DNA of 64,000 nucleotides, from contig NC_058061.1 in assembly GCF_020085105.1 (NCBI RefSeq), positions 7,535,284 through 7,599,283 of the forward strand, given 5' to 3'. A program made the position numbers and the translations under genes. Below are positions 15,469 to 38,508 of the stretch, piece after piece. The notes below the pieces were generated by a model that did not search any database, was not told the origin of the DNA, and worked only from the letters and a program-made list of their open reading frames with translations. The first letter of the stretch is position 1; each line of letters begins with the position of its first letter. This stretch comes from Siniperca chuatsi (taxonomy: Eukaryota > Chordata > Actinopteri > Centrarchiformes > Sinipercidae).

Positions 15469-18400
15469 ATGGCGCTCCAAACCTCCAGGATTTTTTCTTT
15501 GCTGTTTGTGATCGCAGTTGCCATTGTACTTTTAATTTTATCATGGGGATATTTATCAACAAGCATCAGGTAAGTTGTCCTTCTATTTAGTCTAGAGAAA
15601 CATTAAGGATAAAGAAGGAAACTTAACACTAAGATTTTTTAATCTGTAATATTTTCTGGTACATTAGTTCTTTTCTTTAAAGAAATCTGTATCAGCACAT
15701 TTCCAGTTACATTATTTTTATTAAAGTCACTTGCTAATTCTCATATGTTGCGTCTATTGCTCTTTTGTTTTTTTTCAATTTCCAACTCAGCTGGACTGCT
15801 TTCTCAGAAAATAACAGACACCAAGATGAAGACAGTTTGCTTAAGAGTTACATTGAACTCTGGGTTAAAAAAGGAAACTCAACCCATCCGCCTGCTGTGT
15901 TCACCACAACACATAAAGCAAAAATTGCTGATTCCACAAAAACAAACCAGGTGACAAAGCTAAAAACTGATCAAATGAGAGCCTCTACACATGGCGCTGT
16001 GGCTGAGACTCCCATACCCGTCCTTTTAAAAAAATCCTTCAAGAAGCTTCCTCAGTGGGATTTTGAGGATGTTTATAACCAGGATGCCCCACCCAGACAG
16101 ACAGTAAGCAAGTTATGACAAGATAGTACATTACTTATAATAATGTAAATGTAATATAAATGTATTAACTTTGTGGGTGTGGGAAAACCTGTCTGATGGC
16201 GGCACAGCTGTGTGTTCACTTGTGTGTCTTTGGTGTGACCTGCATGGATTAGATGTTTGCTTTTCCCGTGAACGATTTCACACAGTATCATTACCTCTAA
16301 CTACAACCTATTATATTTCATTTGGGTTCTGACTGACATTCCTCTACCTGTTTGACTTCTCTGTCACCAGATTTTTATTTTTATTATTTTAATTTTTACA
16401 GCTGTTTCTTCAGCTGTATCTATTAAATCATTGATTTCAGCCAGATGAACAAAGTGGAAATCTAATTTTATATATTTAGTTGTTTGTTTTCCTGTTAGAA
16501 TTATTTCATAATTTAATATTTAATCCTTTATTCACAGACATGTGCCCAGTCTCTGCGAAACTCTGAGGATGAGAGCTTCAAGAAGGCTTTCCTTCCCAAC
16601 ATACGTTTGTTTTTGCACAAAAACAATTTCAACATGAGCGAGTGGAACCGACTTTCACATTTTAACAACCCTTTTGGTTTTATGGAATACCAGTATAACG
16701 GTAGGTGTTTGTATGTGTCTGTGTGAGACAAGTGTGCTGACACTGTATTTCATAAATACTGTGTGGTTGCTGGGTAATGGACATATTTATCATGTACACT
16801 TTCATTCTTCTGGATATTGCCAAAGTACTCCTCACATTGTTTTGGCACCATAACCAAAAATGTGACAAATCGAGGCATGTTGTTCCATTTGACATGTGTT
16901 GGGATTCAGGTAGGGTGGATTTGGTTATTAGCAAAATATCAAAGATATTTCTGAATATTAATACAATTATTAAAATGGAATAATGATTACAGGGCACCAC
17001 CTTGGGATTAGGGACCAATAACCAAATGTGAACAACAGTCTCAAAGGTGGATGTCCACCTAAAAATGCTGATATTTAAAGTACTATCTTACATTAATAAT
17101 AGTGGACAGTGGAGGGTGAATCCGAGCACTGACCGTCACAAACAGCTATTATTACAACAAATACAAAATATAACCACAGGGAACTGCTCTTTAAAGGTAC
17201 AATAGAGTTTATTTAACCATAGCACTGATTAATAATCATAACTTCAGCCAACAACCACTATCATCTATTCTAAACACAATAAGCATTGGACAATCAGCAA
17301 GCATGTAAGGTGTGTGTTTGTGTGTCTGGAACAATAGAGAGGAGGGGTGCAAGGAAGATAGCAGACGTGACCACGTGGGTGCTCGTCATGCACAGATCCA
17401 AAATGGCAGGCAGGCCTGCGAAACTCAAACAAAGGGGAGAGCCAAAATGGCGGACAGGCTCTATTTGTCCTCAAGATGGCGTGAAGCGTAGCTAGTTATG
17501 CTACCACGCTATTTGGGTCATTTGAGATTTGTGAAAAGGTGTGTGGGTTAGGGAGGAGGAAAGAGAAAGAAAAGCACGCAGAGTAAGGCACAAGAGATTT
17601 CAAATGCCGTGGTAAAGTACAAAAGCTGTCCCTTTATCACACAGGAACCCGGCAGCCAACTTTCTTTCAACAGCTGAGTCACTAACTTGGTCTGATAAAG
17701 CACAGCTGTTAGCTTCCACAGTGGCTACAAAACTAACACAATTAAACGGTCCAGCTGCGTGGTCCCAATACGTAATGGAACACACTAAGCACAAAAACAC
17801 ACAGCAGAAACAGGACATGGATTATTATATGGAAGGTCACAATCAGGATCCAAAAGGTTGTTCAGCAAACAGTCTGTTGCTTGTCCAGCGAGTTAAGACT
17901 TTACCTAGGGAGTTAAAGTTCACGTGATGTGTCCCCTGAAGCAACCGAAGTTACAATGGAAAGACAGCGAGTGGTCTGTGTGCTCTGCTTTTATAGAGGT
18001 GATGACGCCATGGCCAGAGCACCAGGATTTCCTGCGCCCCTTTGGCTTCTTGTCCAGTAGGAATCTAGGCTTTGGACCTAAATGAAATCTCACGTCAGGG
18101 TGTGAATTAACAGCTGGTGGAGATTTGGCACCATTTCTATGAGTTCAGGCTTTTTGGTTTCACTACAGCCTCTGTTCTTTGTTCTCCACACATGGTGAGG
18201 CCCAACACATGCCTGTTGGGGAAAAGGGAAAAGAATGATGGGGAAAGGTTGCTAATAATTTTCTAGGTCTGTCAACTTCATCATAATTAGAAAGTTTATT
18301 TAAAGCTGCTCTAAGAAATATTTGTAGCCTATATTAACAATGGATAAAATGACTGTAATGTGAAAGAGGTCGCTCATAGTGATGAAATTACAGACAATTA

Positions 18401-21400
18401 TCACCTGAATCTGCAGTTCCCTATAGTTTTACAGACGGTTTTAGCATCTTTCAACTCATTGTTTTGGTTTTATGGCCCTTTACTTTAAAATTTAACTGTT
18501 TTCACTCTCACCGCTCTCATGAGCAGCTTTTTCAGTGAAAAAGCTCTAAAAAAAAAAAAAAAAAAAACCTGTACTCAGCACCAAACCATAGAGAGACAAA
18601 GTTAGCAACTAGCAGATATTTTTCCTCAGGAGTTGGTGGAGACCAAAACAGAGCTAAAAGGAGAGTGAATATTTGACTAACAGGTGGGCATAAACACAAC
18701 TTCAAATGAATGCTAATTAAAGTGCTTGCTATAACAACTTTATGAGGTGATTATATGTTAATGTCGTGCTTACATCTTGTTCTGCTGCCCCCAGATGGCC
18801 AAAAATTTAATTGCAGGCTTAAAGTGAAACGTAAGTAAATTTACTTAAGTACTGTACTTACAATTTTGAGGTACTTGTACTTTACTTGAGTATTACCATT
18901 GTATGCTATTTAATACTTCTACATTTTGAAGGAAATATTGTACATAATGCACCCAAATATTGGGTATGTAAAGTCTCTGCACACACCCCCCCCCCACAGG
19001 TGTTTTCAATAACTCTGATTAGGCCTGTAGTCAGGTAGTCTAGTTAAGTACAGCTTTGTTGGGAATTACGTGATTTCACCAAACTCCATGTACTAATAAA
19101 TGTATGTTAATTTGCATTTTATTTAGCAATTTAAGATTTGAGCTAAATTTGTATGGAAACTTGTCTACTGACAGTGTTCATTCTGCACAACGAGTACTTT
19201 TACTTTAAATATTTTAAGTAAACGTTTCTCTTTTTCTTTTACTTCAGTAATATTTTGAATGCAGGACTTTTAAAATACGTGTTGAGAAATATCTGTAAAG
19301 CCAAGGGGAGCTGCAGATTTGGGTGATTATTCACTGTAGGTTCATCACTACGAGCAACCATAGTCACATTGTTTTCACATTGTTACTATAGAAATATAAT
19401 TTGTAGCCACTTTAAGCATAACACATTTGCCAACACTTGTAAGCAACCACCTAGCAAGCCATTAGCAATATGCCAGTGACTTACTTGCAGAAAACCTTCT
19501 TGTTGTAAACTGTTTTGCAGCTTGTGTGCGCATTTTTTCATGTTTTCTTATTTTTGGTTTGCAGATATGATGTCTTCATTGAAGATGATCCCAAAGCCAA
19601 AAGAGCCACTACTCCTTCCAAAGCCAGGCAACGGCGGGTGTGTGCGCTGTGCTGTGGTGGGCACTGGGGGGATCCTCAATGGCTCTAAAATGGGGAAAGA
19701 GATCGATGCTCACGATTACGTCTTCCGGTAAGAAAGACGGAGAAAACAAACCTGTCAATTTTGTTTGTTAGTCATCTCCTGGCAGGCTATGAGGTTTCAA
19801 AACTATTTGACAAATAATTCGTGGAAGGGATTTTGAAGATCATATATGTGTCATTTATAATTTCTTTGCTTCACATCTATCTGAGGTGATGGCTATCAGG
19901 AGCTATGTTAGCTATTGTGTGTGATCAGTACTCAGGTGAGTGAGATCTGTTGATTGCAGTGGGTGGAGCTGGTGGTGTCTGTGTTGGCTCTCTGACAGTA
20001 CCCCCTCCTCCACGGGCGGCTCCTGACGCCCGCTGACGGCAACGGGGTCGGCCTCGGCCTCTGGGTGCAGGACGATCTGGATGAGCACTGTGAAAGTCCG
20101 TCAGTAGCGCCGGGTCGAGGATGTCGTCTCGCAGAACTCAAGATCTTTCTTCGGGCCCGTATCCTTCCCAGACTACCAGGCACTCAAGTCGGCCGCCCCG
20201 TCGCCTAGAATCCATAATGGCCTCCACCCGGTAGATTAGGGGTTCCTCAATCACATCTGGAGGAGGAGTTAGGGGTTGCTCCTCGGGTTCTGTGGAAGAT
20301 GGAGACACAGGTTTTAGGAGTGAGACATAAAATGAAGGGTGAATGCTGTACCTCGGGGGAAGCTAAAGCCGGTAGGTGACGTCATTAATCAGCCTCTCCA
20401 TGGGGAAGGGACCTATGTAGCGGGGACTCAGCTTACGTCAAGGCTGCCGGCCGGAGACGCAGATCCCGAGTGGAAAGCCAGACGCAATCCCCTGGATGAT
20501 AGACCGGGGTAGGGGATCATCGGGCATCTGCAAATTGCTTGTGTCTCCGTACAGCATGCTGCAGGTGGATATGGGCTGAGTCCCACACTCTCTCGCTCGA
20601 AACCAGTGGTCAATGGCTGGGACTTCAGATGGTTCCTCAGTCCAAGGGAACAACGGGAGTTGGTAGCCGAGTACGCACTGGAACGGGGTGAGACCCGTGG
20701 TGTTCTGTTTTAGAGAGTTCTGTGCGTACTTGGCCCACGGAAGGAAGCGGTTCTAGCTGGTTTGGTTGTTGTGACAGTAGGTCCGAAGATATCTCCCTAT
20801 CTCCTGTATCTTCCGCTCAGTCTGGCCGTTGGTCTGAGGGTGATAACCGGAGGAGAGCTTGACTGCTACTTGGAGGAGTTTGAAGAAGGCGCAGACTGAG
20901 CATCCTTCCACGAATTGGGAGACATCCCGGACCATACTGGGCCACCAGTAACGAGCCTGGAGGAGCGAGAGAGTACGCTGGCTGCCTGGGTGTCCAGAGC
21001 CCGGGGGAGCATGCGCTGAGCCCAGAAGGTCCTTACGCAGGTTGGTAGGAACGTAGACCTTACCCTCTGGGCCTCCTGGCGGAGCGGGTTCCGAAACTGT
21101 AGCGGCCTGTATTTGGTCATTCAGGTCCCACTGGATAGGGCTGACAAGTATGGTTGGAGGGAGGATGGGTTCTGGTGTGAGGGATTCCTCGGCAGCATGG
21201 ATTCTGGAGAGGGAATCCGCTTTTACGTTCTTGTCTCCGGGTCTATAGGTGATGGTGAAGTGGAAACGGGTGAAGAAGAGACCAGCGGGTTCAATCTTTT
21301 GGTGGTACGGAGGTATTCCAGGTTCTTATGGTCGGTGATGATAGTGAACGGGTGATTAGCTCCCTCCCGCCAATGCCTCCACTCTTCCAGTGCCAACTTT

Positions 21401-24400
21401 ATCGCCAGCAGCTCCCGGTTGCCGATGTCATAATTCTGCTCCGCCGGGGACAGCTTCTTTGAGAAGAAGGCACAAGGATGGAGTTGAGGAGGCTCTCCGT
21501 GGTGTTGGGATAGCACCGCTCCCGCGCCGGTAGTGGAGGCGTCCACTTCCACCACGAAGGGGAGATCTGGGTTTGGATGTGTGAGCACGGGAGCAGTGCA
21601 GAAGGCTCTTTAACTCTTCGAACGCAGCTCGAGCTTCGGGGTTCCAGGACAGTGACTTGGGTTTACGACGGAGCAGGGAGGTGAGAGGAGAGGACATGAA
21701 ACTGAAGCTCTTAATGAATCTGCGATAGACGTTTGCAAACCCTGGGAAACATTGGAGTTCCTTTACTGATTGAAGAAGTGTCCAGTTCTGGATGGCTTGG
21801 ATCTTCCCCTGGTCCATATGAATGCTCTCTGCGCTGACGATGTACCCGAGGAACTGGACCATGGGGCGATGGAACTCGCACTTGTCACGTTTCAGGTAGA
21901 GTTGATGTTTCCGGAGCTGTTGGAGAACCTGCGTGACGTGGTGGTCCCGGGAGTAAATGAGGATATCATCAATGTAGACGATCGCGAAACGATGGAGATA
22001 CTCTCGGAACACCTCGTTCATGAAGCCCTGGAAGACGGCTGGAGCATTGGACAGTCCGTACGGCATCACCAGGTATTCATAGTGGCCTGAAGGGGTGATG
22101 AACGCCGTCTTCCATTCGTCCCCCTCCCGGATTCAAACGAGGTTGTAGGCACTCCGCAAATCCAGCTTGGTGAAGATGCGAGCCCCACGGAGTTCCTCGA
22201 GGGTGGCAGGGACCAGAGGAAGAGGATAGGGGAGCTTGACAGTTTGGCTGTTGAGGGTCCGGTAGTCGATGCAGGGCCGCAAGCCACCGTCCTTCTTACC
22301 CACGAAGAAGAAGCTCGAGGCCGCGGGTGAGGTAGAAGGTCGAATGAAGTTCTGGCGGAGAGCCTCCTCGATGTAATCCTCCATTGCCTTGCGCTCCGGG
22401 ATGGACAAAGGATACACACGTCCTTTAGGCGGTGTAGCCCCAGGCAGCAGGTCAATAGCACAGTCCCATGGCTGATGTGGTGGTAAGAGGGTGGCCGCCT
22501 GTTTGCTGAAGACATCCTGGAACGCCACATAGTCAGATGGGACGTCGAGATCTGGCGGTGGATCAGGACTCTCCACTCGAGTGGCATGTACCTGGACGGG
22601 GGAGTGACTGACCGGAGGTTTGGGAACCGAGGAGATACACTGTCGAAGGCAGGCTGGACTCCCATCTGACTTCTGGAGAGTGTTGTGCTGTGCAAGCAAC
22701 CGACACGTAGGATGATGGGTGGTGTTTGATATTTCACTCTACCACGTCCTAGCGGTTTTCCCTGGATGGTTTCTACCTTAAGTTCAGCATGAGGCAGAAA
22801 CGGTAACTCTAGTTGTTTTAATAACAACGAGGAGATGAAGTTGCGAGAGGAGCCCGAGTCGAGGAGGGCTCGTACTGCAACGACAGAATGAGGGGTGAGT
22901 AATTGAATTTCTAGAAGGGTTAATTTAGAAATTGCAGGAGAACTGGGAATGGTACTCACCGCAGGACGTGGAGGACGGGTTGGGCATGCCCTGATCTGAT
23001 GCCCAGAGGCCCCGCAATACAGACACCGGCCCTGGTTCAGACGGAGTGCACGTTCCTGGGGAGAGAGCCGGTGAGAGTCAACCTGCATGGGCTCTGGTAC
23101 TGGAGGACAGTCTTCGGGTGAAAGCGGTGAATGAGCGGTTTCTTCCGGCTGGCATGCGGTAAGTAACTGAGTGATTTTCAGTTTTCTGCATGAAGTTCTC
23201 AAGTCCAACACTGTTATTGTAGATAACCAATTTTTTACGGAGTTGGGAATTCAAACCCTGGCGATAGGCTGTCATCAGTGCAGCCTCATTCTATCCACTA
23301 GCAGCCGCTAGCGTACGGAACTGTAGGGTGTAATCACTCGCCGAAGAGTTTCCCTGACGTAGGTGGAAGAGCTGGTCGGAGACCGCCAGGTCCCCGGTGG
23401 CGAGACCGAACACTTCCGCACGAAGGGCGTTGACCAACCCTTCGTATGGATTATCCGTCTGGGGAGCGGAGTGCTCCATCTCCAGATGGGTTTAAAGGTC
23501 TGGTCTTCTGTCAGCAGGTGGACACGGAGGTTAGTACAATGATGAGGGAGTTTATTGAACAGCAAGACAGAGTAAAGTAATGACGGTGGATACGAGGGGC
23601 TGAAGCTAGGAAAGTCTATGAGTCTTATCTGATGTAGAGTAGGTAGTTCAATCCACTGGAGGAGACGGGAAACAGGAGAGCCAGGAGTAGACGACACACA
23701 CACAACGGAGGAGTTCAAAGTCCTTAGGGAGTTGTCAGGAGATACTGCGGTCAGGTAGAATCTCGTAAGAGGTTTGAGACCAGACAGTGAGTGAACCGGG
23801 GGAGTGTGACTTTATAGTGTGGGGTTGGTGATTAATGGCAGGTGTGTGATCAGTACTCAGGTGAGTGAGATCTGTTGATTGCAGTAGGTGGAGCTGGTGG
23901 TGTCTGTGTTGGCTCTCTGACAGGTTAATCCATCTATCCATTTTCTGCCCCTTGTCCAGTCCAGGTCACATTCATTTAATTTATTATATTGTTAGGAATT
24001 GTTGTTATTTACTGTTGGTAAGTACTTAGAAAATGTGATTTAATAATAAATAATTCATACTTTGGTCAGTTTGACCATTAAACAAGCATTAAATTGCATT
24101 GTATGTGGCATTGAAAAGTTGTAAATTTAACTTGGTCAACCCTGCAGAAACCCTGAAACATTTCACATGCAAGTGCCATGACCCCAGTTTAGTCTACATT
24201 TGAGTTAGTTTCCACTTGTGTAGCACCCATACAACCACTCTGTATGTTACATACGTGAGAATGAGGGTGCTTGGGTTCGTTGTAGTTCAGGTGGATACCA
24301 CAAAGGTGCACCTAATGAGTTTCTACTCAATTGTAAAACCTTTTGACAGGAATATTTAACAATAATGAGACCCAGAGATGGTTTTTAGTTTAGAAAATAA

Positions 24401-27400
24401 ATGGGTAAAACCCTTGTTTAATGAATCAAAAGGATTTGGCAAATGAAATATACAACTTCCCTAAAACACAATATAAAAGTCCCTAATTATGACAAAATGT
24501 ACAAAATAAATAACCAAAAGATATCCCAAACAATTAAATAATAATCTTAATCCCTTTAAATCACACGTTTTATACCAAAATAAGGTGTAAAAATCTTCCT
24601 CCCTTATATCTTTCCTAAATATTGAGAATGCACAGAGAACTTTACAAAAACGTGTCAAGTGTCCTGTAACAAGTGTTAGCTAATGCAGCGTTGGGCCCAG
24701 TCACACATACATGCTCACATGTTCCAGTTGACTCACCACGGTACCGATTGAACGAAGAAAAAAAGAAAAACAACGTTGCAGGCCTGTTTTGGTCTCGCAA
24801 AACATTGAGTGCGCTGAACTGACACTTACAAAACATTGAGAGCGTCGAAAAGACTGGTCCGGATACGGGTGCGGTGCGATGAACCAACAGCTCTGCCTCG
24901 TGTGCGCCCGCCGTGGCTAGCTAGCTCGGCTACCTCCGATCGCGGCGTCCGCTCCGTCAGACGGGTCGCGGCCTCGTTTCTCAGTCACAAACGGTCCCCT
25001 TCTCTGAACCTCCCTCTCAGTTTCGTCGACTTTAGTGGCTCTTTTTAGCGTCTTTTTCCTTCTCTCTAAACGTGCGGCGTCCCGTGCTCCCCACGGGTCC
25101 AGCAAGAGAGAGCGAGCCAAAAAAAAGCGAGCGAGGAAAAACTGCTTCCAGCACTTTTCATCCGTGTCCCTCTCTCCCGTCACGTGTACCCCGTTTTTAC
25201 GTGCATGCAGCCAAACACTACTCACAATACAGCGTGAATACTCAAATGACCAATAAAAAGCGGTCACATAAACACAGGAAGGATAAAGTAATAAAAGGAT
25301 AGCTGCATAAAACCTCTGATAATATTATTTAACAAAATAATATAAACTTTAACCTTTAGTTTTAATCACTGTCATGAAATAAAATAAATTATTGATCTCC
25401 CTTTAATCATGTAAAATAAATTAGTATTTACTTATTTGAAAATCAGTTGTCACTTATTTATTTAAAGTAAATAAACGTTTACATTTTAATAGTCATGTCA
25501 CTGGGTTTTGAGAATAAGAGGGATCAATCATAACCCACCCAGTTTCCCTTACACTATAATACCCGAATTTACCACTGGGCTACACCCTCCCCCTTCTAGA
25601 CAATTTTGATGCCCTCATCAAATTAAACCTTAGAGGACTCTAATAGTCTTAAAGTCAAGGGTAGAGGCCAGATTTGAACAAGTGAAACACAACGCCATGG
25701 GGTGGCACCAGAGAGTTTGACATTGACTGCTTCTGGAGTCTCCGTATAATCCACTTCCCACCAACACTCCATGGCTTAAGACTGTCACAGGGTAGTCACA
25801 GGGCTTGCCAAGTTCATCGTAGCTCAGCTTGACCACTGGACGGATGATTCTTTTTGAACGCTCAACTTGTTCAATCTCAGCTTGAGTGTCTGGATAGGAG
25901 TTGATGTCTGCTCCCCCTTCTAGAACGTTGACTTCAGGATCAGCATTGGAAGGCAGGTTTGGAAGATCATTGACCACTGTCTCTATCTCAACCGGGTCTT
26001 GAGCTTGTCTTTCAGGTTCGGGGACGATTGGCTGGGATTGTTTCGTGGACAGTTCTGGATGTGTCAGTAACTTTTCCCAGTCAAACTCAACGGGTCTTGG
26101 CAGGTATACTTCGTCATATTCTGATTCTGAAGACAAATCTTCATCGTGGTTGTTTGTCTGTACTGGTTCTTTTGTCTTCTGCTGGAATGCTCTGGTCACA
26201 GGTCTTTGTTGTGGCTCCACTTCACTTTCGTCGACAGGGAGTCTCACAAGGTATCCAATGGGTAACAGGTGGTTACGATGAATAGTCTTTTCTGTTCCCA
26301 TGCCTCTCTCTGGCTTGATCTTGTAGACCGGTAAGTTGGGTAGCTTCTCCACAACAATATATGGTGAGGGTCGCCACTTGCATTTCAATTTGTGCTTGCC
26401 TGTGACTCCAAAGTTTCTCAGCAGCACCCTGTCGCCTTTGTCAAGGACTTGCTCTTTGACGTGCTTGTCGTGTGCTTTTTTATTTCTTTGATGGTTCTTG
26501 TCTGACGATTCTGTGGCAAGACTGTAAGCTCTTTGGAGATCTTTCTTGAGCTTAGCAACATACTGATGGTAAGACTTTGTCTTTTGGTTGTCCTCGGTCA
26601 CACCAAAACAGATGTCTACCGGCAAGCGAGCTTCTCTGCCGAACATTAGCAGGTAAGGCGAATAACCAGTTGCGTCATTTTGAGAACAGTTGTAGGCATG
26701 GACCAACTGACTGATCTTCTGACTCCATTTTTGTTTTTGCTTTGGGTCGAGTGTGCCCAGCATTGACAAGAGTGTACGATTGAATCTTTCTGGTTGCGGA
26801 TCTCCTGTGGGTGGTAAGGCGATGTTCTTGACTTGCGAATGCCCAACATCATCAGAAGGTCTTGGATCAGTTTGCTTTCAAAATCACGGCCTTGATCTGA
26901 GTGTATGCGGGCAGGAGTCCATAGTGTACAAAGTAGCGCTCACATAGTATCTTGGCCACGGTGGTCGCTTTCTGATCTTTGGCGGGAAAAGCTTGGGCGT
27001 GTCGAGTAAAGTGGTCTGTCACTACAAGGATGTTGGCGAAACCTTGGGAGTCTGGCTCAAGTGACAGAAAATCGATACAGACGAGATCTAGAGGGCCTTG
27101 ACTAGTGATCTGCTTTAAGGAGCAGCTTTCTGGGGAAAGGCTTTGCGAGTAATACATCTGCCGCAATTTTTGATGTACTGCTCAACCTCAGCTCCCATCT
27201 TCGGCCAATAGAACCGGCTTCTGATAAGTTCGATGGTCTTGTCCATGCCCAGGTGACCAGATTCATCATGCAGAGATCTCAAAACCATCGGAACATACTC
27301 TCTGGGCAGTACCAGCTGCTTTACTTCAGTTCCATTTTTCTCAACCTTTCTGTAGAGCAGATTGTTTTGAATGAACAGTTTGCTTGCTTCTTTGTTCAAC

Positions 27401-30400
27401 AGGACTGACGTTGGATTGTCGGGGCTGGTGAATGATGGACCACCACGAAGTGACTGTTTGACTGGAGCGATAGTAGAGTCAACATCTTGAGCGGTGACAA
27501 GATCTTTGTGACTGAGCTGACTCAAAGAACCAAGATCCAGCCGGACTGGGTAGGCGAAACACTCTGGTATACCATCAGGTGACAATCCGAGTGACTCAGC
27601 TATAGTTGTGGGCTCTGTTGGAGTTTCACAGCACTTGATCTGCTTACACAGAGCTTGAACACTTTCATTCGTTACGGTTTGCCAGCCTTCTTCTGTGGTT
27701 GGAAGGGGGTTGCGTGACAGGGCATCGGCATCGATGTTGCTACTGCCAGGCCTGTACTGCAATGTGAAATGGTAAGTGGCAAGTGCTGAGAGCCAGCGGT
27801 GACCTGTCGCGTTGAGTTTGGCAGTCGTGAGGATATAAGTGAGGGGGTTGTTATCAGTTCTCACGGTAAACTGTGCTCCATACAGGTAATCGTGGAACTT
27901 GTCGACCACTGCCCATTTAAGTGCCAAAAACTCAAGCTGGTGTACTGGATAGTTCTTTTCAGAGGCACTTAGCTTGCGGCTTGCGAAAGCAACAGGTCTC
28001 AAACCCTCGGGGTACTCTTGGTTGAGGACAGCGCAGAGCCCATGACAACTGGCGTCAATGTGAAGTATGTAAGGCTTGGTGGGGTCGCCGAATGCCAGCA
28101 CCGGTGCGTTTGTGAGGCAATGGATGATCTTTTGGAATGCCTCTGAACAAGACTGGTCCCACCGGTCACCAAACGGCTCATTGACTTTGTAGTAGGTCTT
28201 GTCTGCTGCAGAGGTAGACTTTCGCTTCTTTTGGGTGGGAGGATAACCTTTGCACAGCTCTGTAAGTGGTCGAACGATGATGGAATAGTTTTTTATAAAC
28301 CTGCGGTAGTAGCCGCAGAACCCCAGAAACGACTGCAGAGAAGAAAGGTCGGTTGGCTGCTTCCACCGCTTCACTGCTTCAACTTTGTCCGGGTCTGTGG
28401 CGATACCATGCTCGGAGACAATGTGCCCGACGTAGGTGACTTGTGAGCGACAGAACTGGCACTTGTCGAGGGACAACTTGAGTCCAGCTTCTTCAAGACG
28501 AGTGATGACTTTGAGTAGTCTTTGCTCATGCTCCTCCAAAGTCTTGCCGAAAACAATGAGATCATCAAGATAGACAATGACTTCAAGCATGTGCATGTCG
28601 CCGACTGCCTTTTCCATTAGTCTTTGAAATGTCGCAGGGGCCCTGTGATCCCCTGCGGCATCCGCTCAAACTGGAAAAATCCCAGAGGACAAATGAAGGC
28701 GGTTTTCTCTTTGTCCTCCTCAGCCATCGGGATTTGATAGTAGCCGCTGCGCAGATCCAACACTGAAAACCACTTACTGCCAGACAAGCAATCGAGAGCG
28801 TCGTCGATACGTGGTACAGTGTACTGATCTGGGATAGTTCTGCGGTTCAGGGTGCGGTAGTCGACACACATACGAAGTTGACCATTCTTTTTACGTGCAA
28901 GGACGATGGGTGACGCATATGGACTTCTTGATTCTTTTATGATCCCAGCCGCCAACAAACCTTGCAGGTGACGCCGAAGATCATCCAAATCCGCAGGGGC
29001 AATACGTCGAGATCGCTCTCTGAAAGGAGTGTTATCGTTCAGGCTGATGTGATGCTCTACCCCTCTAGCCAAACCGACATCCCACTCTTCAACAGAGAAC
29101 ACGTTGGAGTGTTTGGCAAGCTTTTGGCTCAGCCTCTCTTTCCACTCCTTGCTGATGGGGGACTCACTGAAGTCAAACAGAGAGGGATCCATAGCTGAAA
29201 CAGATTCAACTTTAGGGTTTGGTGCATCTGTCACAATGTCAGCGACGTGAAGGTAAGCGATAACGGTGCCCACTGGAATGGCAGTTTGTTTTAGAGACTC
29301 ATTACGCAGAAGCACCAGGAAGTTGTTTGGATCTAGCATCTTGGAGAACAGCACAGCGGGCTGGACCAGTACACTTGGTGGAAGAGCAAGTGAGTGGGCT
29401 CGTTCAAGGATGAGTATGCTGTCTCCGATGTCTTGTTTTTCTTTGACTTTGCAGATAGCAACGTATTCAGAGCCAGGAGGGATGCTGAGAGGACCAGGGC
29501 CAGACCACTTAACTTCAGCCACAGGTAAGTCTTTGTTGTCTTTTGTAGACGTCACTGCAGGAACAGGTAAGTGGTTTTTCTCTTGAACTTGGATGTTGAC
29601 TGAGTTGATGTTCTCTGTGTCTTCTGTCTTTGTTCTGGACTTAAAAGGCTGAACCCCCCTGACGTTTGTGCCGATCAGGACAGGTATAGACTCTGAGCAA
29701 CGTGGATCAGGGCACACCAGGGCCAGGATAGGAACAGACTTGACTTTGTAACACTTGGACATTTGTGGCAGCTCCAGCTCAACTTGGATGTAACCTTTGT
29801 ATGGGTAACTGCGCTCTGACTCACTTAGGCCCCATATGGCTAGACCGGTCACAGAGTTTAACTGAATGTGTGAAAGGTGTTCGGCATACCAGCTGTCGAA
29901 GATGATGGTAACTTGAGAGCCACTGTCCATCAGCGCAGTGCAGGGGTTACCATTGATCTTGACTTGAGCAGTGGAGGGTGGTCCCACGAGTCCCTTGGGC
30001 AAACTGTTGGTCTGTACATTTACAGAGCTTCTCTTGACACTCGTGATTTGTGTTCTTTGTTCTTGTTTCGTTATCAGATTTGTAGTTCTGCTTGTACTTT
30101 CTTTGAGCTTGCAGCAGTTTCTGTATTACTTTGGGATAGTTCTCAGGAGATACACACTTATTTGCAAAATGCCCATCTTCGCCGCACCGATAGCAGAAAA
30201 AATCACTTGGGTCTCTGGCGGTAGAGGGTCTTTGCTGCCAGGGTCTGGACTGAGTCTCTTGTGGGCAGGTCTCAGTAGCCGGACTGTACTTAGGCTTGAC
30301 TGACATGACAGAGACTTGCTTTCGAGCTTGACTACTTCTTTCTTTAACGCTTGAACATTCTTGTCTTCTGAGTTCTCTGCCGCCGGAGTGACTGAAGCCG

Positions 30401-33400
30401 GGCGCTCGTCGAACGGTGACTTGACATGGTGGCGGAGACAGAGAGTTCACTTACTTGTGCTCTGAGTTGGTGTATTTCGGCTTTCAACTCTTTTAACTCT
30501 GTGTCAGGGTCACAGCAGCACTTTTTGGCGTGACGGCTTTGGGTGGATGGAGTCTGCGGCGTGAAGCTTCCTGCTCCTCCTCCAGGCGTATCTCGCTCAG
30601 CAGCTCAAGAAAAGTGGGAGGACTGTCTCTGCGGTCTCTCAATCCAAGATTTAATATCATAAGATCAGATCTGATGGCCCCTTTAATGAGTTGATCAAGA
30701 CGTGCTTTGTCTGCTGCCGATGACTGGAGTCCACCCTTTTGAACAACTTTATTCAGGACTCTCTCAAGTCGTCTCAGGAACTCAGAGAGTTTCTCGTTGG
30801 GGTGTTGACACATCATTCTGAAAGCAAAGTAAAGTTCTTCACCACTCTCAGGGTTGCCAAAGGTGGTCTCAAGAATGTCAATGTAGTCCCTAGAGGTTGC
30901 AGATGGGTTGTTGAAACGGACAGCTTGGAGGATCTCAAGTGCAGGACCCTTTACACTTTCCATTATTCTCATTTTCTTTTCTCTTTCAGGACGATCACAT
31001 TCTTCAATCATAAGTCTGGCTTGTTCAACCCAGTTTTCCAACTGTTCTTCTCCCAGGGTATGGGCATGACCCTGAGAATGTGCGCAGTCTTCTGTAAAGG
31101 CTGTTGTCACCATGTGTGGGCTTACTGGTCATTTGCAGGATATCACCAACCGCTCGAATGATAGCTTCAGGAGTGGAGGCTTGCAGTGGGGAAAAAGACT
31201 GGAATCTTGTTGCGGCACATCTTGACTATCACCCGCTGCCTGAGCTTGGGGTTCTTCCTCCTGCTCAGAAGGTCCAAAGATTCTCCAGGTCATAGCAGAC
31301 CCCTCAGGAACAACATCAAGAGGAATGGCGGCCGTATTCACCTTCTCCCTGCACTCACATAGCACAGTTAAACTTTGAGACTGTGGATCATACATTCTTC
31401 CTCTCACTTTGACTCTCCAGAGTACTTTGATTGTCTGCATCGTTTCTTCAATGAAACCAACTTCAGTTTCTGGAGGTACATCTTTAACCAGCAAGGCTTT
31501 CACCGGGTCTATGCCTTCTCCAACACACCAGTTCTTCAACTGAGCCATCCCCACGGGTTGTGCGCTTACATTAATCACTTGTCAGAACTAAATTTGGTAA
31601 GTTTTAGTTGTATTTTTACTCAGATAAAGCTTAATTTGCGTTTTTGTGGCTTAAAATGCTTAGTAGAACTCTTTTGCTGTTTCAAAGTTTTCTCAATAGC
31701 TACTCTTTAATATGGTTTTTTACATATGTGTTAACAGCTAGCCAGCTTTTGCTTCTAAACTACTTTTTAAACAAAATATTTAAAATCTCTGGGTCAAACT
31801 AAAGTTAGAGCTGATTTAAAACTACTTTTGAACTAAATTTATCCCAGCGGTGCCTCCATTTTATTTATGTAGCACCCATACAACCACTCTGTATGTTACA
31901 TACGTGAGAATGAGGGTGCTTGGGTTCGTTGTAGTTCAGGTGGATACCACAAAGGTGCACCTAATGAGTTTCTACTCAATTGTAAAACCTTTTGACAGGA
32001 ATATTTAACAATAATGAGACCCAGAGATGGTTTTTAGTTTAGAAAATAAATGGGTAAAACCCTTGTTTAATGAATCAAAAGGATTTGGCAAATGAAATAT
32101 ACAACTTCCCTAAAACACAATATAAAAGTCCCTAATTATGACAAAATGTACAAAAATAAATAACCAAAAGATATCCCAAACAATTAAATAATAATCTTAA
32201 TCCCTTTAAATCACACGTTTTATACCAAAATAAGGGGTGTAAAAATCTTCCTCCCTTATATCTTTCCTAAATATTGAGAATGCACAGAGAACTTTACAAA
32301 AACGTGTCAAGTGTCCTGTAACAAGTGTTAGCTAATGCAGCGTTGGGCCCAGTCACACATACATGCTCACATGTTCCAGTTGACTCACCACGGTACCGAT
32401 TGAACGAAGAAAAAAAAAGAAAAAACAACGTTGCAGGCCTGTTTTGGTCTCGCAAAACATTGAGTGCGCTGAACTGACACTTACAAAACATTGAGAGCGT
32501 CGAAAAGACTGGTCCGGATACGCAGGTGCGGTGCGATGAACCAACAGCTCTGCCTCGTGTGCGCCCGCCGTGGCTAGCTAGCTCGGCTACCTCCGATCGC
32601 GGCGTCCGCTCCGTCAGACGGGTCGCCGGCCTCGTTTCTCAGTCACAAACGGTCCCCTTCTCTGAACCTCCCTCTCAGTTTCGTCGACTTTAGTGGCTCT
32701 TTTTAGCGTCTTTTTCCTTCTCTCTAAACGTGCGAGCGTCCCGTGCTCCCCACGGGTCCAGCAAGAGAGAGCGAGCCAAAAAAACGAGCGAGGGAAAAAC
32801 TGCTTCCAGCACTTTTCATCCGTGTCCCTCTCTCCTGTCACGTGTACCCCGTTTTTACGTGCATGCAGCCAAACACTACTCACAATACAGCGTGAATACT
32901 CAAATGACCAATAAAAAGCGGTCACATAAACACAGGAAGGATAAAGTAATAAAAGGATAGCTGCATAAAACCTCTGATAATATTATTTAACAAAATAATA
33001 TAAACTTTAACCTTTAGTTTTAATCACTGTCATGAAATAAAATAAATTATTGATCTCCCTTTAATCATGTAAAATAAATTAGTATTTACTTATTTGAAAA
33101 TCAGTTGTCACTTATTTATTTAAAGTAAATAAACGTTTACATTTTAATAGTCATGTCACTGGGTTTTGAGAATAAGAGGGATCAATCATAACCCACCCAG
33201 TTTCCCTTACACTATAATACCCGAATTTACCACTGGGCTACACTTGTATAGTCAGATAACCTGTCAATTTGTAGAGATGTTTCTGGTTCAGAAACTTTGT
33301 TTAGCATATCAGTGTTCAGCACTAAGCAAAGTCAGATTCCCAGTCATAGTCATCAAGAAATTCCAGTAACAATTTCGTCATTTTAAGTGACTCTCCTGTG

Positions 33401-36014
33401 TGCCTTGATGAGGAAGTATGCCAGTGAGTAAGCTGGCCCAAAACTGTTGCACTTAAATGGATTATTTATAGCCATTGTTAATGTTATTACGTAATCCTGT
33501 GCTTTTCCTACTATGACATGTCAAAATGTCTGCCGTGAGAAAGACCTATTGTTGAAATCTCACTGGTACTACTTGTCTGTTCTTAATATTAGGGACAAAC
33601 AACAAACTCTGTGAGAGAGGTTTATGGTAAGAGTGAGATATTACTTTTGAGAAACACCTCTACTTAATCTGTCTTGAACTATCTGTCACTGCATACTATC
33701 ATAAAATGAAGATGAAGTTTACAGTAAACAAAGACACTGATGTTACCAAGATGATGTGTGTGTGGTTTATGCTTGGCACTGGGCGTTGCAGAGGACGTTC
33801 AGCTGGATCTGTTCCAGTTCCATATAGCAATTGTTCTTTTCTCCACTCATGGCCTCAGATAGACCAGACTCTAAACTGACAATCAGCAATCAGCAGTGCC
33901 GCCCTTCCTACCATGCAGGGCTATCACATCTTTCTTACGAATCAATCAGAGGCCGGTAGCAGGCAGTACAGATGACCGTGAGCCAAAACAAGTAACCACA
34001 AGAAGAGATTCTTGAGAAGAGAGCCTTCACACTCACAAACCTGTACCTCAACCTAGATGTCACTTGTTTGTGTTTAACAACTCAAGTTCAAATTCTTTAT
34101 TGTCATTTGCACAACAACTACAGTGAAGCAGTCATTCTTAGTTCTCAGGCTCCCTCCAACAATGCTCAAACAATATGTATAAAAAGAAAATCATGAAAAC
34201 AAAAAGACAGAATCTAAAAATGTATGTGCAGTTCATTCAACCTTCTTTTAAATCTCGAGGAATCATTGAGGGCATGCCCTCATTTTCAATGATGTCGAGA
34301 TTACAAAAAAGAATAAATACACACAAAAAATAGGTAACGAGAAAACAAACAGCAACAGAACACAGTTAAAAACAATTACATTCAAATGTGGAGTATTTTG
34401 TAATCATGGTGTCAAATTGACCTAGAGGTACAAATGTGTTGAATTGTAGTGTGTGTTGTAAAATGTTCCAAGTGTGTGCAGCACAAAAACCAAATGCAGT
34501 TTCCCCAAATGTGGTGGTTGCATGCGGGGCATCAACCAATCACCTGATCGAGTCAAATCATGACTGTGGGACCAGTTTAATAAGGAAGTGATATATTGTG
34601 GCAAGTTGCCATTAAAAGTTTTATAAATAAATAGAAACCAATGCCTGTCCTGTCTTACTGTTAGAGATGACTTCCCAGCGTTTTCATACAAGATGCAATG
34701 ATGGCAACATCACCATAGTCCAAGACAGACAAGAGAACGGCCTCAATTATCTTCTTCCTGCTGAGCATAGGAAAATTAGCTCAGTTTCTGTACAAATATC
34801 CAATTTCTTTGTCGTAGCTTGCTGTGTCAACATGAAATTTAAACGTAACTTTTTGATCCAGCCAGATACCAAGATATTTGTACTCCAAAACCCTCTCAAT
34901 ACTCCATGTCCATTCAGAGTGGTAATATCCAAACTATTGTCCACAATATCTGTGGCTCTAGAAAATAGCATGTATTTAGTCTTATTTGCATTCAGGACTA
35001 ATTTCAAATTGAAAAGTGCATCTTGCGATTTGTCAAAGGCTTGTTGTAGGATTTCAGTGGCTGAGTGTGCAGTATTTGCAAAACAATACAGAACTATTGT
35101 CCGCATAAAGATGGGCATTACAATTGTTAATATAAATTGTGAACCAGACAGGACCCAATATTGAACCTTGTGGTAGCCCTAAACATATAGACAAAAAGGA
35201 AAACAATTAAAGCATTAAGAAAATGTAAAGTACACATAATGTATACATGCATAATATGTGTTAAGCATTGCATTTCATATATTCCTATTTCACCTGTCCA
35301 TGAAATATAAATATATACATATGTGCTCTGATAAAGCTACGTATATATGCTCAGTCAGTCCTTGTATATATAGTTAACAATACGTAATCTCAGTCAGAGG
35401 TTACGTATTGTAGACCTGTATGTGTGTTTCTTGTTCAGCTGTTTCTTTTTTTTTTACCCATTTGCCTTTTGATTAATAGCTGTGTTTAACAATGATAATC
35501 TGTTTTGCATGTAAGGAAACTGACAGCTGCTAACAACCTCCTTGTGTGTTTTACAATAAACTTGATTCAGATTCTTTGTGGGTATCATATAAACTCTTTT
35601 TTTAAACTAATAAAAATTCAACCACATGTTGATTTATGAAGGCCACTCTTACATTTCGTTTGTGTGGCAGGATGAACGGTGCAGCCATCAAAGGTTACGA
35701 GGAAGACGTAGGAAACAGAACATCGGTGTACGTTCACACGGCCCACTCCATCACTATGTCGCTGTATTTGTTCAAGAAGTACGGATACACATCTGCCCCG
35801 CATGATGAGGTACTCAAACTCGAATGACAAGCGTTTAATATTGTAATGGTTTGTACCACACACATAGACACTCATCTGTCATCCTCTTCCTTTTGGCAGG
35901 GTATAAAATACGTGATGATTCCTGAGGGGGTGGGGGATTTCAACTGGCTTGAGGGTCTTCTCAAAGGAGAAAGGGTCTCTGCTGGCCCATATCACAACAA
36001 ACGGTGAATAACAA

Positions 36015-36064
<50 letters not shown>

Positions 36065-38508
36065 TAGTGGAGGATAACATGCCCACACAAACACACATAC
36101 AGTAGATCGAGTGCTGGAACATATTGGATTGGGCCTGGAAACGGGGTAATATCTGATGCAAGTGAACATTTATTTTTAAAGTCATTTTAGTTATGAGTTA
36201 CTAAACTAATGGACGAAAGCCAAGCAGGTCTCAGTTAGAACATTTTATGGAGATTAAAAGTCGTGTTAAACTTTCACAAGATACACTGTACGCTCCTTTG
36301 TGGCTCGGCCAGAAAACTCCCTTCAAACATCAGGCGATTTAATTAGGTCATTCCAGAGGCGAAACTCATACAGTGTACTTTGTGAAACGCTACAACCCAC
36401 AGTGTCAGCAGTAAAAGTTAATTGTCAAGTGTTTATGATTTCAAGAACAGCTTTGTAACATCTTCCGTGCCCATTCTTTACCTTCTTAAGAGTAGCATCA
36501 CTCTGTTATGTTCCTTAGCGTCCTTCGTCAGTTTCTCACAATATGTTACCACTTGTGTTGTATGGAGTCTGGAATGTGCCCCTGCAATAATTATAGACTT
36601 TTTTGGTGTTAAATAAAAATACATACAGAAATTGATACATTTTTTAAAAGCTATAATACAATGATTATTTAAGTTTGCATTTTAATGTTGAAATTTAAAA
36701 TTCTGGGGTGGGGGAGCAGGAAGCACAATGCAAACAATAACAAATAACATTTTGCTCTCCACTCCACAATTGACTCATTAGAGTGGATCATTCACTGACA
36801 TTTTCAGGTAAACCAGTATTTAAGTGCACTGGCAAGTCCAACATCCCCCCCGCAGCAGATTAAGCCCAGAGTCTTGTATTGTACAAACATGAACTGACAA
36901 AGCACATGTTTCAGCATGTCATAGTTTCGTTATCTCTATTGACTTTTGTTTTTTAACCCTCCAGGCCGTGGACGTACTATGGTGGGCAGTACAATGAGAG
37001 CCGCTTCTATGTTCTGCACCAGGATTTCCTCAGATACGTGCGGAACAGGTCAGCCCTCTTTCCTTTGTATGCTTTATAATAATAATGATAACTTATTTGT
37101 ATAGTACTTCATGCAGAGATGCAGCCCAAAGTGCTTCACAAAATAGGATTAAAAGCTGAAAACAAAAATGAAAATAAACAATAACATTAAATACAAATGT
37201 TTGATAACATTACAAACAATAACAATAAAACCAACAGATAAAAATGATACAAACAGCAAAAGTAAAGACTTGACTAGGTATCCCATATAAAAATTAAAAT
37301 TCTCAGGTCAAAATAAAGCTTCTTTAACTTTATGGTTACTTTGGACTCTGTAGTTTGACTTGTCTTATAGATAATATGGTTATAGCCATATACCTGTATA
37401 CCATATAGGTATATATGGTTTTTAATGTACATATCTTCATTTGACATTGTTCTTTGCCTACAGGTTCTTAAAGTCTGCTCATCTGAATAATTCATACTGG
37501 GCGATAGTCCGACCAACCAATGGGGCATTCGCTCTCTTCCTGGCTCTGCACACCTGTGACACTGTAAGTTAATATTACTTAAACTTGTCCAAATGCCATC
37601 TTTAGGTATCCACGCCTGTATAAATATGAAGTATACAGTATACAGACAGTTCAGACAGTACAGACAGTTCATCAATTCTTAAAAGAATAGTTCGACATGC
37701 AGGGAAATATGTTTATTTGCTTTCTTGCTGGGAGTTAGATGAAAAAAACGATACAATTCTCATGGCTGTTCATTAACTATATAGCTAGACCCAGCAGGCG
37801 GTTAGCTCAGCTTAGCAAAATATCTGAAAACACTGGCAAACAGCTGCCTACCAGCATCTCTAAAGCTCACTAATTAACATCTTGTTTGTTTAATCCGAAT
37901 GTTAACCAAAGTGTAAAAATGACTATTTGTGGTTTTACTGGGGGTTATGTGCGGGACTATTTCTTGGCCGGGTGTATTGATTTCTTAAAACCACAAATTG
38001 TTGTTTTTACTCTTCACGTTTTCAGAACTACAGACAACATGTTACCTTGTGAGCTTTAGAGGTGCTGGTTGGCGGATCTTGTTACCTTTAGACAGAGCCA
38101 GGCTATGTGTTTACCTATGTTTCCAGTCTTTAAGCTAAGCTAAACTAACCATCTGCTGGCTGTAGCTTCCAATTTTTCAGACAGACATGATTTTGGTATC
38201 GATCTTCTCATCTAACTCTTAGCAAGAAATTTTAACAAATCTTTTCTTGGTGTGAGTTATTCTCAATCGTCCCTGTTCTCTGTTTTTGTCATTCTCAGGT
38301 GAGCGCATATGGATTCATGACTGAGGACTACAAGAAATACTCTAACTACTATGTTGAGAAGAATATTAAAACCCATGTCGTTTTCTACGCAAACCACGAC
38401 TATATCCTGGAGATGAATTTGTGGAAAAAATTACACAACAGCAAAATAATGAGGCTATATCAAAGAACAGACTCAGAAACAGGGACAGAAAAACCGAAGC
38501 AACTCTGA
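15469..38508 (+). CDS. GalNAc alpha-2,6-sialyltransferase (ST6GALNAC1/2 type), copy A
   Basis: Nine coding exons: 15469-15569, 15791-16103, 16538-16700, 19565-19727, 35671-35809, 35900-36003, 36965-37048, 37464-37563 and 38299-38508. All are GT-AG with consistent phase, giving 458 residues. It is a type II Golgi enzyme adding alpha-2,6 sialic acid to O-linked GalNAc. Residues about 8-28 form the membrane anchor, followed by a polar stem to about 200. Sialylmotif L begins at Cys218 ([15 protein letters not shown]) and continues into exon 5. Motif S is in exon 8 ([10 protein letters not shown] through LHTC). Motif III is near 403-409 (YSNYYVE). Motif VS is His422-x4-Glu427 (HDYILE). Several N-glycosylation sequons are present. 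ST6GALNAC1 and ST6GALNAC2 cannot be separated with confidence; adjacency to mxra7 resembles human ST6GALNAC1, but the length is intermediate. Intron 4 is 15.9 kb because of insertions. Confidence 0.93.
16897..18207 (-). mobile_element. Solo LTR in intron 3 of copy A
   Basis: 1311 bp with ends TGTTGGGA and GGCCCAACA, flanked by the 4-bp target duplication CATG (16893-16896 and 18208-18211). On the minus strand it has a TATAAAAG box near 17990 and AATAAA near 17210, in the order expected of U3-R-U5. No internal retroelement sequence remains, so it looks like a recombined solo LTR. The same insertion is present in copy B. The short frames inside are not genes. Confidence 0.8.
18548..18567. repeat. 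Poly(A) tract
   Basis: A run of 20 A. The copy B counterpart near 55321 is interrupted ('aaaaaaaaaactgaaaaaaaa'). Confidence 0.85.
19917..19997 (-). repeat. Truncated 3' LTR of the sushi-like element
   Basis: 81 bp matching 23842-23922 with one substitution. It starts (minus strand) TGTCAGAGAGCC directly after the polypurine tract. The rest of the LTR is missing, and the break point joins intron sequence shared with copy B. Confidence 0.85.
20010..22900 (-). pseudogene. pol remnant of the sushi-like element (PR-RT-RH-IN-chromodomain)
   Basis: Read right to left: protease with [12 protein letters not shown] (about 22850); reverse transcriptase from [17 protein letters not shown], with the YIDD catalytic box at 21965-21976; RNase H (VEVDAS and [10 protein letters not shown]); the integrase zinc region (GHPG ... 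CSVCA); then [14 protein letters not shown]. The integrase core between CSVCA and SGYHPQ, which should carry the first two catalytic acidic residues, is absent (junction near 20880). A chromodomain follows (about 20105-20225: [13 protein letters not shown] ... DDILDP). In-frame stops include 22133-22135 in RT and 20138-20140 in the chromodomain, with additional frame shifts. It is a non-functional relic. Confidence 0.85.
22900..23480 (-). pseudogene. gag remnant of the sushi-like element
   Basis: On the minus strand a start at 23479 opens MEHSAPQTD and soon reaches a capsid-type segment ([20 protein letters not shown]), too early for a full Gag, so the N-terminal half of the capsid appears deleted. 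A TAG at 23291-23293 interrupts the frame in what is normally a Trp-containing motif. A CCHC zinc knuckle, [14 protein letters not shown], lies at 22984-23025. Confidence 0.8.
23509..23922 (-). repeat. 5' LTR of the sushi-like element
   Basis: 414 bp on the minus strand from TGTCAG to CTGACA (inverted 6-bp ends). It contains CTATAAA (plus-strand 23811-23817) and AATAAA (plus-strand 23551-23556), matching promoter and polyadenylation signals. I see no obvious match to a tRNA 3' end immediately after it; some Tf1/sushi relatives self-prime, but that is not shown here. Confidence 0.75.
24219..25584 (-). repeat. 3' LTR of the PNMA-type element
   Basis: 1366 bp bounded by TGTAGCACCC and GGGCTACA. 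It is nearly identical to 31868-33242; the differences I see are mainly one- or two-base indels in simple runs, plus about one substitution. The many frames inside this LTR are not genes. Confidence 0.93.
25630..30002 (-). pseudogene. pol of the PNMA-type element (PR-RT-RH-IN), frame-broken
   Basis: Minus strand: protease box [12 protein letters not shown] with [12 protein letters not shown] and [12 protein letters not shown]; a frame break near 28640; the YLDD catalytic box at 28561-28572; RNase H ([34 protein letters not shown]); the integrase HHCC zinc region ([12 protein letters not shown] ... CGRC); breaks near 27120-27160 and 26900 within the integrase core ([26 protein letters not shown]); then the integrase C-terminal half with HNCSQ-like and [10 protein letters not shown] segments and an acidic tail of about 190 residues ending at 25630. 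All catalytic domains are recognisable, so the breaks are recent or are assembly errors. Confidence 0.88.
29990..31548 (-). pseudogene. gag of the PNMA-type element, frame-broken
   Basis: An ATG at 31548 opens [12 protein letters not shown], followed by [29 protein letters not shown] and MTWRIF, the ordered landmarks of PNMA-family N-terminal domains. A second segment from about 31113 ([49 protein letters not shown]) matches the PNMA capsid region. A CCHC knuckle, [14 protein letters not shown], is at 30154-30195. Frame breaks fall around 31110-31250 and 30450-30500, the latter inside a coiled-coil-like stretch. Capsid and nucleocapsid function is known for the family; activity here is not implied. 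Confidence 0.88.
31841..31858 (-). other. tRNA-Thr primer binding site
   Basis: The plus strand reads ATCCCAGCGGTGCCTCCA, equal to the 3' end of vertebrate tRNA-Thr plus the CCA tail. On the minus strand it starts TGG, nine bases after the 5' LTR. This is the expected position for minus-strand priming and confirms the element's orientation. Confidence 0.85.
31868..33242 (-). repeat. 5' LTR of the PNMA-type element
   Basis: 1375 bp with the same ends as the 3' LTR (TGTAGCACCC ... GGGCTACA). It is CpG-rich in its central part (about 32500-32800). Confidence 0.93.
34077..35180 (-). mobile_element. LINE fragment with 3' end
   Basis: On the minus strand, reverse-transcriptase C-terminal segments ([15 protein letters not shown], then [29 protein letters not shown]) are followed by a 3' UTR containing a 16-bp palindrome (34267-34282) and the tail 'acaataaagaatttgaacttgag'. 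It is 5'-truncated with frame breaks. The family looks CR1/L2-like but was not resolved. Copy B shows the same tail from about 63945 to the window end, so this insertion predates the duplication. Confidence 0.75.
36016..36060. repeat. (CT)n(TA)n microsatellite
   Basis: A short CT run followed by about 18 TA units, a few bases into intron 6 of copy A. Confidence 0.9.
37681..38240. repeat. MITE-like repeat in intron 8 of copy A
   Basis: Begins 'aaagaatagttcgacatg' and ends near 'cttctcatctaactcttagcaag'. It shares the core ('gttagctcagcttagcaaaa', 'gccaggctatgtgttta') with the MITE at 13916-14431. Ends are eroded. Confidence 0.55.

What the first reader, a model, noticed from the sequence alone, without database searches (positions are those of the whole stretch)
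24219..33242. Near-complete retrotransposon carrying a PNMA-type Gag
The element has ordered PNMA-like Gag landmarks (LxNWC, ALLV, IEET, RGRMY, AAIP, W.IF, then the capsid segment), a CCHC knuckle and a full Ty3 pol. PNMA genes in mammals are known to derive from Ty3/gypsy elements; this is a living-style relative with all parts in place, useful as an outgroup for capsid evolution.
Basis: partly seen in the sequence, partly recalled or inferred. Interest (0 to 1): 0.75.

Follow-up and report, generated by a model that had tools for sequence, protein, structure and literature searches.

The report
Fish retrotransposon with PNMA-type Gag
This is a recently inserted fish jumping element whose shell protein belongs to the family from which mammalian PNMA genes arose; that kind of element is already described, and this copy has broken reading frames that may partly be assembly errors.

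Summary
Confirmed: window 24219-33242 (- strand) is a two-LTR Ty3/gypsy (Metaviridae) insertion with TGTAGC/GCTACA ends, a 4-bp CTTG target duplication, a polypurine tract and the order PNMA_N - PNMA capsid - CCHC - PR - dUTPase-fold domain - RT - RNase H - IN.

Corrected: this copy is not intact. Gag and pol are split over several frames; its 8 private one-base deletions lie mostly in base runs, so assembly error may contribute. The kind is published: Henriques et al. 2024 (PMC11011659) report RBD-CA-NC metaviruses in fish, amphibians and reptiles.

Added: a low-copy young family. Gag and Pol share one frame in the C21 copy and in relatives, while 7 of 7 examined loci of other PNMA-type families in this genome hold pol in the -1 frame; 6 have an in-phase G_GGA_AAC/U or U_UUA_AAC at the gag end, and 3 of 6 tested a pseudoknot reached by at most 2 of 1000 shuffles. 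Mammalian PNMA capsids do not nest in the window's group (AU p=0.005). New member of a known kind.

The parts
31868..33242 (-). 5' LTR, 1375 bp, TGTAGC...GCTACA
24219..25584 (-). 3' LTR, 1366 bp
24215..24218 (.). target-site duplication, left copy (CTTG on + strand)
33243..33246 (.). target-site duplication, right copy (CTTG on + strand)
31841..31858 (-). putative primer-binding site, 9 nt inside the 5' LTR; resembles the 3' end of tRNA-Thr (recalled, not confirmed)
   Evidence: for position; the same string follows the 5' LTR in the C3 and C54 copies
25585..25596 (-). polypurine tract abutting the 3' LTR
   Evidence: same string before the C3 and C21 3' LTRs
31279..31548 (-). Gag N-terminal PNMA_N (RRM-like) domain
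   Evidence: PF20846 E=4e-12; PNMA2 8uyo E=3e-9
30598..31059 (-). Gag capsid, PNMA type
   Evidence: PF14893 E=2.7e-45; PNMA2 8uyo E=3.9e-26, MOAP1 7lgc E=8.5e-11
30154..30195 (-). CCHC zinc knuckle
   Evidence: PF00098 E=1.4e-4
29637..29990 (-). retroviral-type aspartic protease
29193..29540 (-). dUTPase-fold domain between protease and RT, probably not catalytic
28417..28895 (-). reverse transcriptase, split over two frames
   Evidence: PF00078 in two pieces; Ty3 RT nearest in PDB
27772..28161 (-). RNase H
   Evidence: PF17919 E=1.5e-32, PF17917 E=4.6e-30
27139..27306 (-). integrase zinc-binding domain H2C2
   Evidence: PF17921 E=1e-19
26808..27097 (-). integrase core, split over two frames
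   Evidence: PF00665 E=1.3e-4 and 3.3e-6, each half below cut-off
25633..26769 (-). integrase C-terminal region and Pol tail; no chromodomain, no envelope gene
   Evidence: no Pfam match for 25633-26769 or 25633-26877; 36 bp between the end of this frame and the polypurine tract

Best explanation
A Ty3/gypsy LTR retrotransposon (Metaviridae) of the PNMA-Gag kind, inserted recently in a fish genome. Shown here: two near-identical LTRs, ends, 4-bp target duplication, PNMA_N-capsid-CCHC Gag, PR, a dUTPase-fold domain, RT, RNase H and IN, a few near-identical copies and nine solo LTRs. Inferred from known biology of the family: the LTR-driven RNA is translated to Gag and Gag-Pol, Gag forms a capsid around the RNA (PNMA_N and CCHC both candidate RNA-binding parts), a tRNA primes reverse transcription at the primer site, RNase H leaves the polypurine tract as plus-strand primer, and integrase inserts the DNA with a 4-bp duplication. 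In this family Gag and Pol lie in one frame, so the Gag:Pol ratio would be set by proteolysis or another means rather than by frameshifting. The window copy as assembled cannot make its own proteins.
For: Domains. PDB. Ends, duplication, primer site, polypurine tract. Copies: LTR query 31 matches, 15 of them over the whole 743-bp query at 97-100%; gag DNA 4 places, near-identical RT DNA 3 places. Window, C3 and C21 internal DNA about 99% identical. One frame: in the C21 copy 731 codons run open from the CCHC knuckle into RT; 15 of 28 CCHC-bearing proteins among the 186 fetched hold CCHC and protease motif in one chain at 85-89 residues spacing.
Against: In the window and C3 copies as assembled, pol is in the +1 frame relative to gag, so the one-frame claim rests on C21 and on relatives. 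No transcript, particle or mobility data. The tRNA of the primer site is recalled; a 19-base pattern of that tRNA gave 0 matches in the genome.
Confidence: 0.94

Rival explanations
1. A host PNMA-like gene (domesticated Gag), as in mammals, rather than a mobile element.
For: Many fish proteins of this type are named 'paraneoplastic antigen Ma1 homolog' in databases.
Against: LTR pair with target duplication, full set of pol domains, several near-identical dispersed copies and solo LTRs.
Confidence: 0.02
2. The window copy was already defective when it inserted and was carried by proteins of another copy (trans-mobilised), so its lesions are old and biological.
For: LTRs nearly identical (3 mismatches and 8 gap openings by blastn; 7 mismatches and 7 gap events by MAFFT) while the coding part has many lesions; C3 and C21 share one in-frame stop in the capsid at different insertion sites.
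Against: The window's one-base deletions are private to it among the three copies compared, and the window does not share the C3/C21 stop.
Confidence: 0.25
3. Much of the frame damage of the window copy is long-read assembly error in a repeat that cannot be polished.
For: Private changes: window 13 substitutions, 8 deletions, 1 insertion; C3 6, 9 and 4; C21 25, 0 and 1. Of the window's 8 one-base deletions 7 lie in runs of three or more of the same base, of C3's 9 deletions 6 lie in runs of four or more, against 18% and 6% of bases. C3 LTR pair: 0 mismatches but 7 gap events.
Against: Runs are also natural slippage sites; no reads were available; C21 and other PNMA-type loci in the same assembly have long open frames.
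Confidence: 0.55

Closest known systems
RBD-CA-NC metaviruses, PNMA ancestor proxy Gypsy-30_Ami (Henriques et al. 2024, PMC11011659; abstract, section 8 part 1, section 10 and passages read)
   Same: PNMA_N (called RBD) - capsid - NC Gag, and a dUTPase between Gag and RT reported only for this proxy among the four studied; authors list 12 Repbase consensus elements and 217 RBD-like ORFs, fish included
   Different: The sequence of Gypsy-30_Ami was not available for comparison; here the dUTPase-fold domain shows no conserved catalytic set, and copy number, one-frame Gag-Pol and neighbours with -1 frame are described
Gypsy12_DR group of zebrafish (Campillos et al. 2006, seen only as cited in passages of PMC3406341)
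   Same: Ty3/gypsy element with PNMA-type Gag in a fish
   Different: Not compared by sequence; Repbase is not held here
Mammalian PNMA genes (PNMA2 8uyo/8rb3, MOAP1 7lgc)
   Same: PNMA_N and capsid homology, 35.2% identity to PNMA2 capsid over 165 columns
   Different: Host genes without LTRs or pol; capsids lie outside the window's group
Ty3 of yeast
   Same: RT nearest among solved structures, E=4.3e-72 for 4ol8; same domain order
   Different: Gag of PNMA type, added dUTPase-fold domain, 4-bp duplication

Membership tests
Metaviridae (Ty3/gypsy LTR retrotransposon) | Two LTRs with TG...CA ends and a short target duplication | tested here: met
   7 of 9 solo LTRs of the family also have exact 4-bp duplications, L011 and L012 do not
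Metaviridae (Ty3/gypsy LTR retrotransposon) | Pol order PR - RT - RNase H - IN | tested here: met
Metaviridae (Ty3/gypsy LTR retrotransposon) | RT closer to Ty3 than to retroviral or caulimoviral RT | tested here: met
   profile of 31 relatives: Ty3 246.7 bits, caulimovirus 177.1, foamy virus 110.7; no tree with named Ty3 clades
PNMA-type Gag | PNMA_N RRM-like domain | tested here: met
   PF20846 46.8 bits, cut-off 27
PNMA-type Gag | PNMA capsid | tested here: met
   PF14893 154.2 bits, cut-off 25
PNMA-type Gag | CCHC nucleocapsid knuckle after the capsid | tested here: met
   PF00098 22.2 bits, cut-off 20.8
Domesticated PNMA gene | Single-copy host gene without LTR and pol | tested here: not met
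Gypsy12_DR / Gypsy-30_Ami subfamily | Sequence identity to the Repbase consensus | not testable with these tools
   Repbase and Dfam are not held
Catalytic dUTPase | dUTPase fold | tested here: met
Catalytic dUTPase | Conserved active-site motifs | tested here: not met
   between positions 114 and 277 only N234 is invariant or nearly invariant in 31 relatives; PF00692 matched by 1 of 31 at E=0.0016; the motifs themselves are recalled
Chromovirus | Chromodomain at the integrase C-terminus | tested here: not met
   no Pfam match in 25633-26877
Errantivirus / env-bearing element | env gene between IN and 3' LTR | tested here: not met
   Pol frame ends at 25630, polypurine tract at 25585-25596

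The most novel reading that the evidence does not exclude
PNMA-type fish elements fall into two recoding modes: a group that includes the window's family, with Gag and Pol fused in one frame, and a group that makes Pol by -1 ribosomal frameshifting at G_GGA_AAC or U_UUA_AAC before an H-type pseudoknot. The -1 frameshift known in the mammalian genes PNMA3 and PNMA5 would then be an inherited gag-pol recoding signal of the second group, kept after pol was lost, and the window's family a cousin that lost it.
Probability: 0.45. Interest if true: 0.5.

Novelty: new member of a known kind. Interest (0 to 1): 0.33.

Why it matters
It confirms in one more fish genome that elements with the complete PNMA Gag (RRM-like domain, capsid, knuckle) are still inserting, which gives experimentally accessible relatives for asking what the RRM-like domain of PNMA proteins does in a capsid. 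The side result, a -1 frame and slippery site with pseudoknot in sister families but not in this one, makes the origin of the PNMA3/PNMA5 frameshift testable. The copy also warns that frame lesions in young repeats of long-read assemblies may be artefacts.

Tried and rejected
Shared deletion between the window copy and P0001 as proof of an amplified defective lineage: proposed from the protein, dropped after the DNA showed only frame changes in the window. Domesticated PNMA-like host genes in this genome: L001-L005, L059 and L060 all have pol matches beside gag, so none of the 7 examined is a lone gene; of the 22 PNMA capsid places, 4 belong to the window's family, 7 were examined and 11 were not. 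Minimum-free-energy folding of the stretch after the slippery sites showed no excess stability (6 of 6 z-scores between -0.02 and -0.55); a nested fold cannot show a pseudoknot, so an H-type scan was written: L002 2, L003 1 and L059 1 of 1000 shuffles reach the score; L004 169, L005 152; L001 has none. L002 and L003 are near copies, so this is two independent cases. For L004/L005 a knot with an interrupted first stem can be drawn by eye but fails the test. Rfam: no match in 9 loci at E up to 1, none in window 18000-38000 at gathering. The first capsid tree held P0114, which has no capsid; it was dropped and the tree redone with 41 rows. In that tree the branch {PNMA2, MOAP1, L001-L005, the two divergent loci} against the rest has 98.8/94 support, but whether PNMA joins the frameshifting loci or the rest is open (AU 0.44 and 0.46, neither rejected). 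PNMA inside the window's nine-row group is rejected (AU 0.005), inside a wider 14-row group it is borderline (0.052). Host placement: a beta-globin exon scores best with 1xq5 (155.9 bits) against 114.5 for 2r1h and 109.5 for 1out, which I read as a perch-like host (species of these entries recalled); the alpha-globin exon did not separate them. Horizontal transfer: the best-named Gag match is Pseudorasbora parva (84.2% over 120, 90.7% over 86 residues), but Mugilogobius is practically equal (83.5% and 89.6%); not claimed. Primer tRNA: 19-base pattern, 0 matches; shorter pattern did not complete. PNMA_N count in the genome did not complete.
Full report
Observation. Window 24219-33242 holds, on the - strand, a 5' LTR (31868-33242, 1375 bp) and a 3' LTR (24219-25584, 1366 bp), each TGTAGC...GCTACA, with CTTG on both sides. 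Inside lie a putative primer site 9 nt from the 5' LTR and a polypurine tract abutting the 3' LTR; the same strings sit at the same places in other copies.

Gag. Pfam finds PNMA_N (E=4e-12), PNMA capsid (E=2.7e-45) and a CCHC knuckle (E=1.4e-4) in order; Retrotrans_gag is below its cut-off. Against PDB the capsid piece matches only PNMA2 and MOAP1 chains up to E=1 (three sequences), and the N-terminal piece only PNMA2 up to E=5. Fish proteins named Ma1 or Ma2 homolog fill the named part of the homologue lists (14 proteins, 55).

State of the copy. As assembled it cannot make Gag or Pol: coding similarity jumps between frames in gag, at the gag/pol border, in RT and in integrase. Compared with C3 and C21, the window has 13 private substitutions, 8 deletions and 1 insertion, C3 6, 9 and 4, C21 25, 0 and 1. 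Seven of the window's 8 one-base deletions are in runs of three or more (18% of bases), six of C3's 9 in runs of four or more (6% of bases). This looks like consensus error in two long near-identical copies, but natural slippage is not excluded. C3 and C21 share one in-frame stop in the capsid that the window lacks.

Copies and age. The genome (719 Mb, 65 contigs) gives 31 matches to a 743-bp LTR query, 15 of them full length. Six of the 15 belong to four element copies (window two, C3 two, C21 one, C54 one); nine are solo LTRs, seven with exact 4-bp duplications and two without. C21 has lost most of its 5' LTR and the start of gag, C54 matches the window only up to the capsid region. Gag DNA is found at 4 places and near-identical RT at 3, with 8 further RT places at 68-71%; all these are lower bounds by the tool's own note. 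The window LTRs differ by 3 mismatches and 8 gap openings (blastn) or 7 and 7 (MAFFT); the C3 pair by 0 mismatches and 7 gap events. The insertions are young.

Recoding. In C21 the frame is open for 731 codons from the knuckle into RT, and 15 of 28 CCHC-bearing proteins among 186 fetched carry knuckle and protease motif in one chain (the other 13 may simply be cut short). In contrast, 7 of 7 examined loci of other PNMA-type families in this genome hold pol in the -1 frame. In phase with gag, L002-L005 hold G_GGA_AAC and L001 G_GGA_AAU shortly before the gag stop, L059 U_UUA_AAC directly before it and C_CCA_AAU further up, L060 only C_CCA_AAU. H-type knots beat shuffles in L002, L003 and L059, not in L001, L004, L005. 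PNMA_N in these loci is weaker: 26.8 bits in L002 and 22 in L004, both under the cut-off of 27, none found in L059. PNMA3 uses about 20% -1 frameshifting at a classical heptanucleotide with an H-type pseudoknot (PMC5009743, passages). Henriques et al. call the relevance of the PNMA3/PNMA5 frameshift unclear. My searches listed no paper on frameshifting in PNMA-type elements.

Relation to PNMA genes. In a capsid tree of 41 rows and 170 columns PNMA2 and MOAP1 fall with the frameshifting loci on one side of a supported branch (98.8/94), but their exact attachment is open. Placing them inside the window's own group is rejected (AU 0.005), inside a wider group borderline (0.052). So the window's family is a relative of the PNMA ancestor, not its closest sampled kin.

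Verdict. New member of a known kind, interest modest, with one side lead worth a test.

Noticed in passing
L001-L005, L059, L060 (same genome): Other PNMA-type Ty3 families hold pol in the -1 frame of gag in 7 of 7 loci examined; slippery heptamers in phase, and H-type pseudoknots beating shuffles in L002, L003 and L059.
   Followed up: partly
L025, L029, L032, L036 (by eye): Solo LTRs of this family with different internal deletions but both ends and 4-bp duplications kept, at near 100% identity; down to about 56 bp in L036.
   Followed up: no
L028, L030, L033, L034, L035: Short pieces (67-163 bp) of the LTR that all begin exactly at the 5' end of the LTR and are 98.6-100% identical.
   Followed up: no
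window 19917-23923: A second, damaged Ty3-like element on the - strand (CCHC by eye, protease, RT pieces) between two 82-bp direct repeats 99% alike, about 300 bp from the PNMA-type element.
   Followed up: partly
window 29193-29540: dUTPase-fold domain between protease and RT without conserved catalytic positions.
   Followed up: yes
window 30496-31578 against P0002: Gag pieces are about as close to a cyprinid protein (Pseudorasbora parva) as to a goby one (Mugilogobius), although the host looks perch-like by one globin exon; horizontal transfer possible, not shown.
   Followed up: partly
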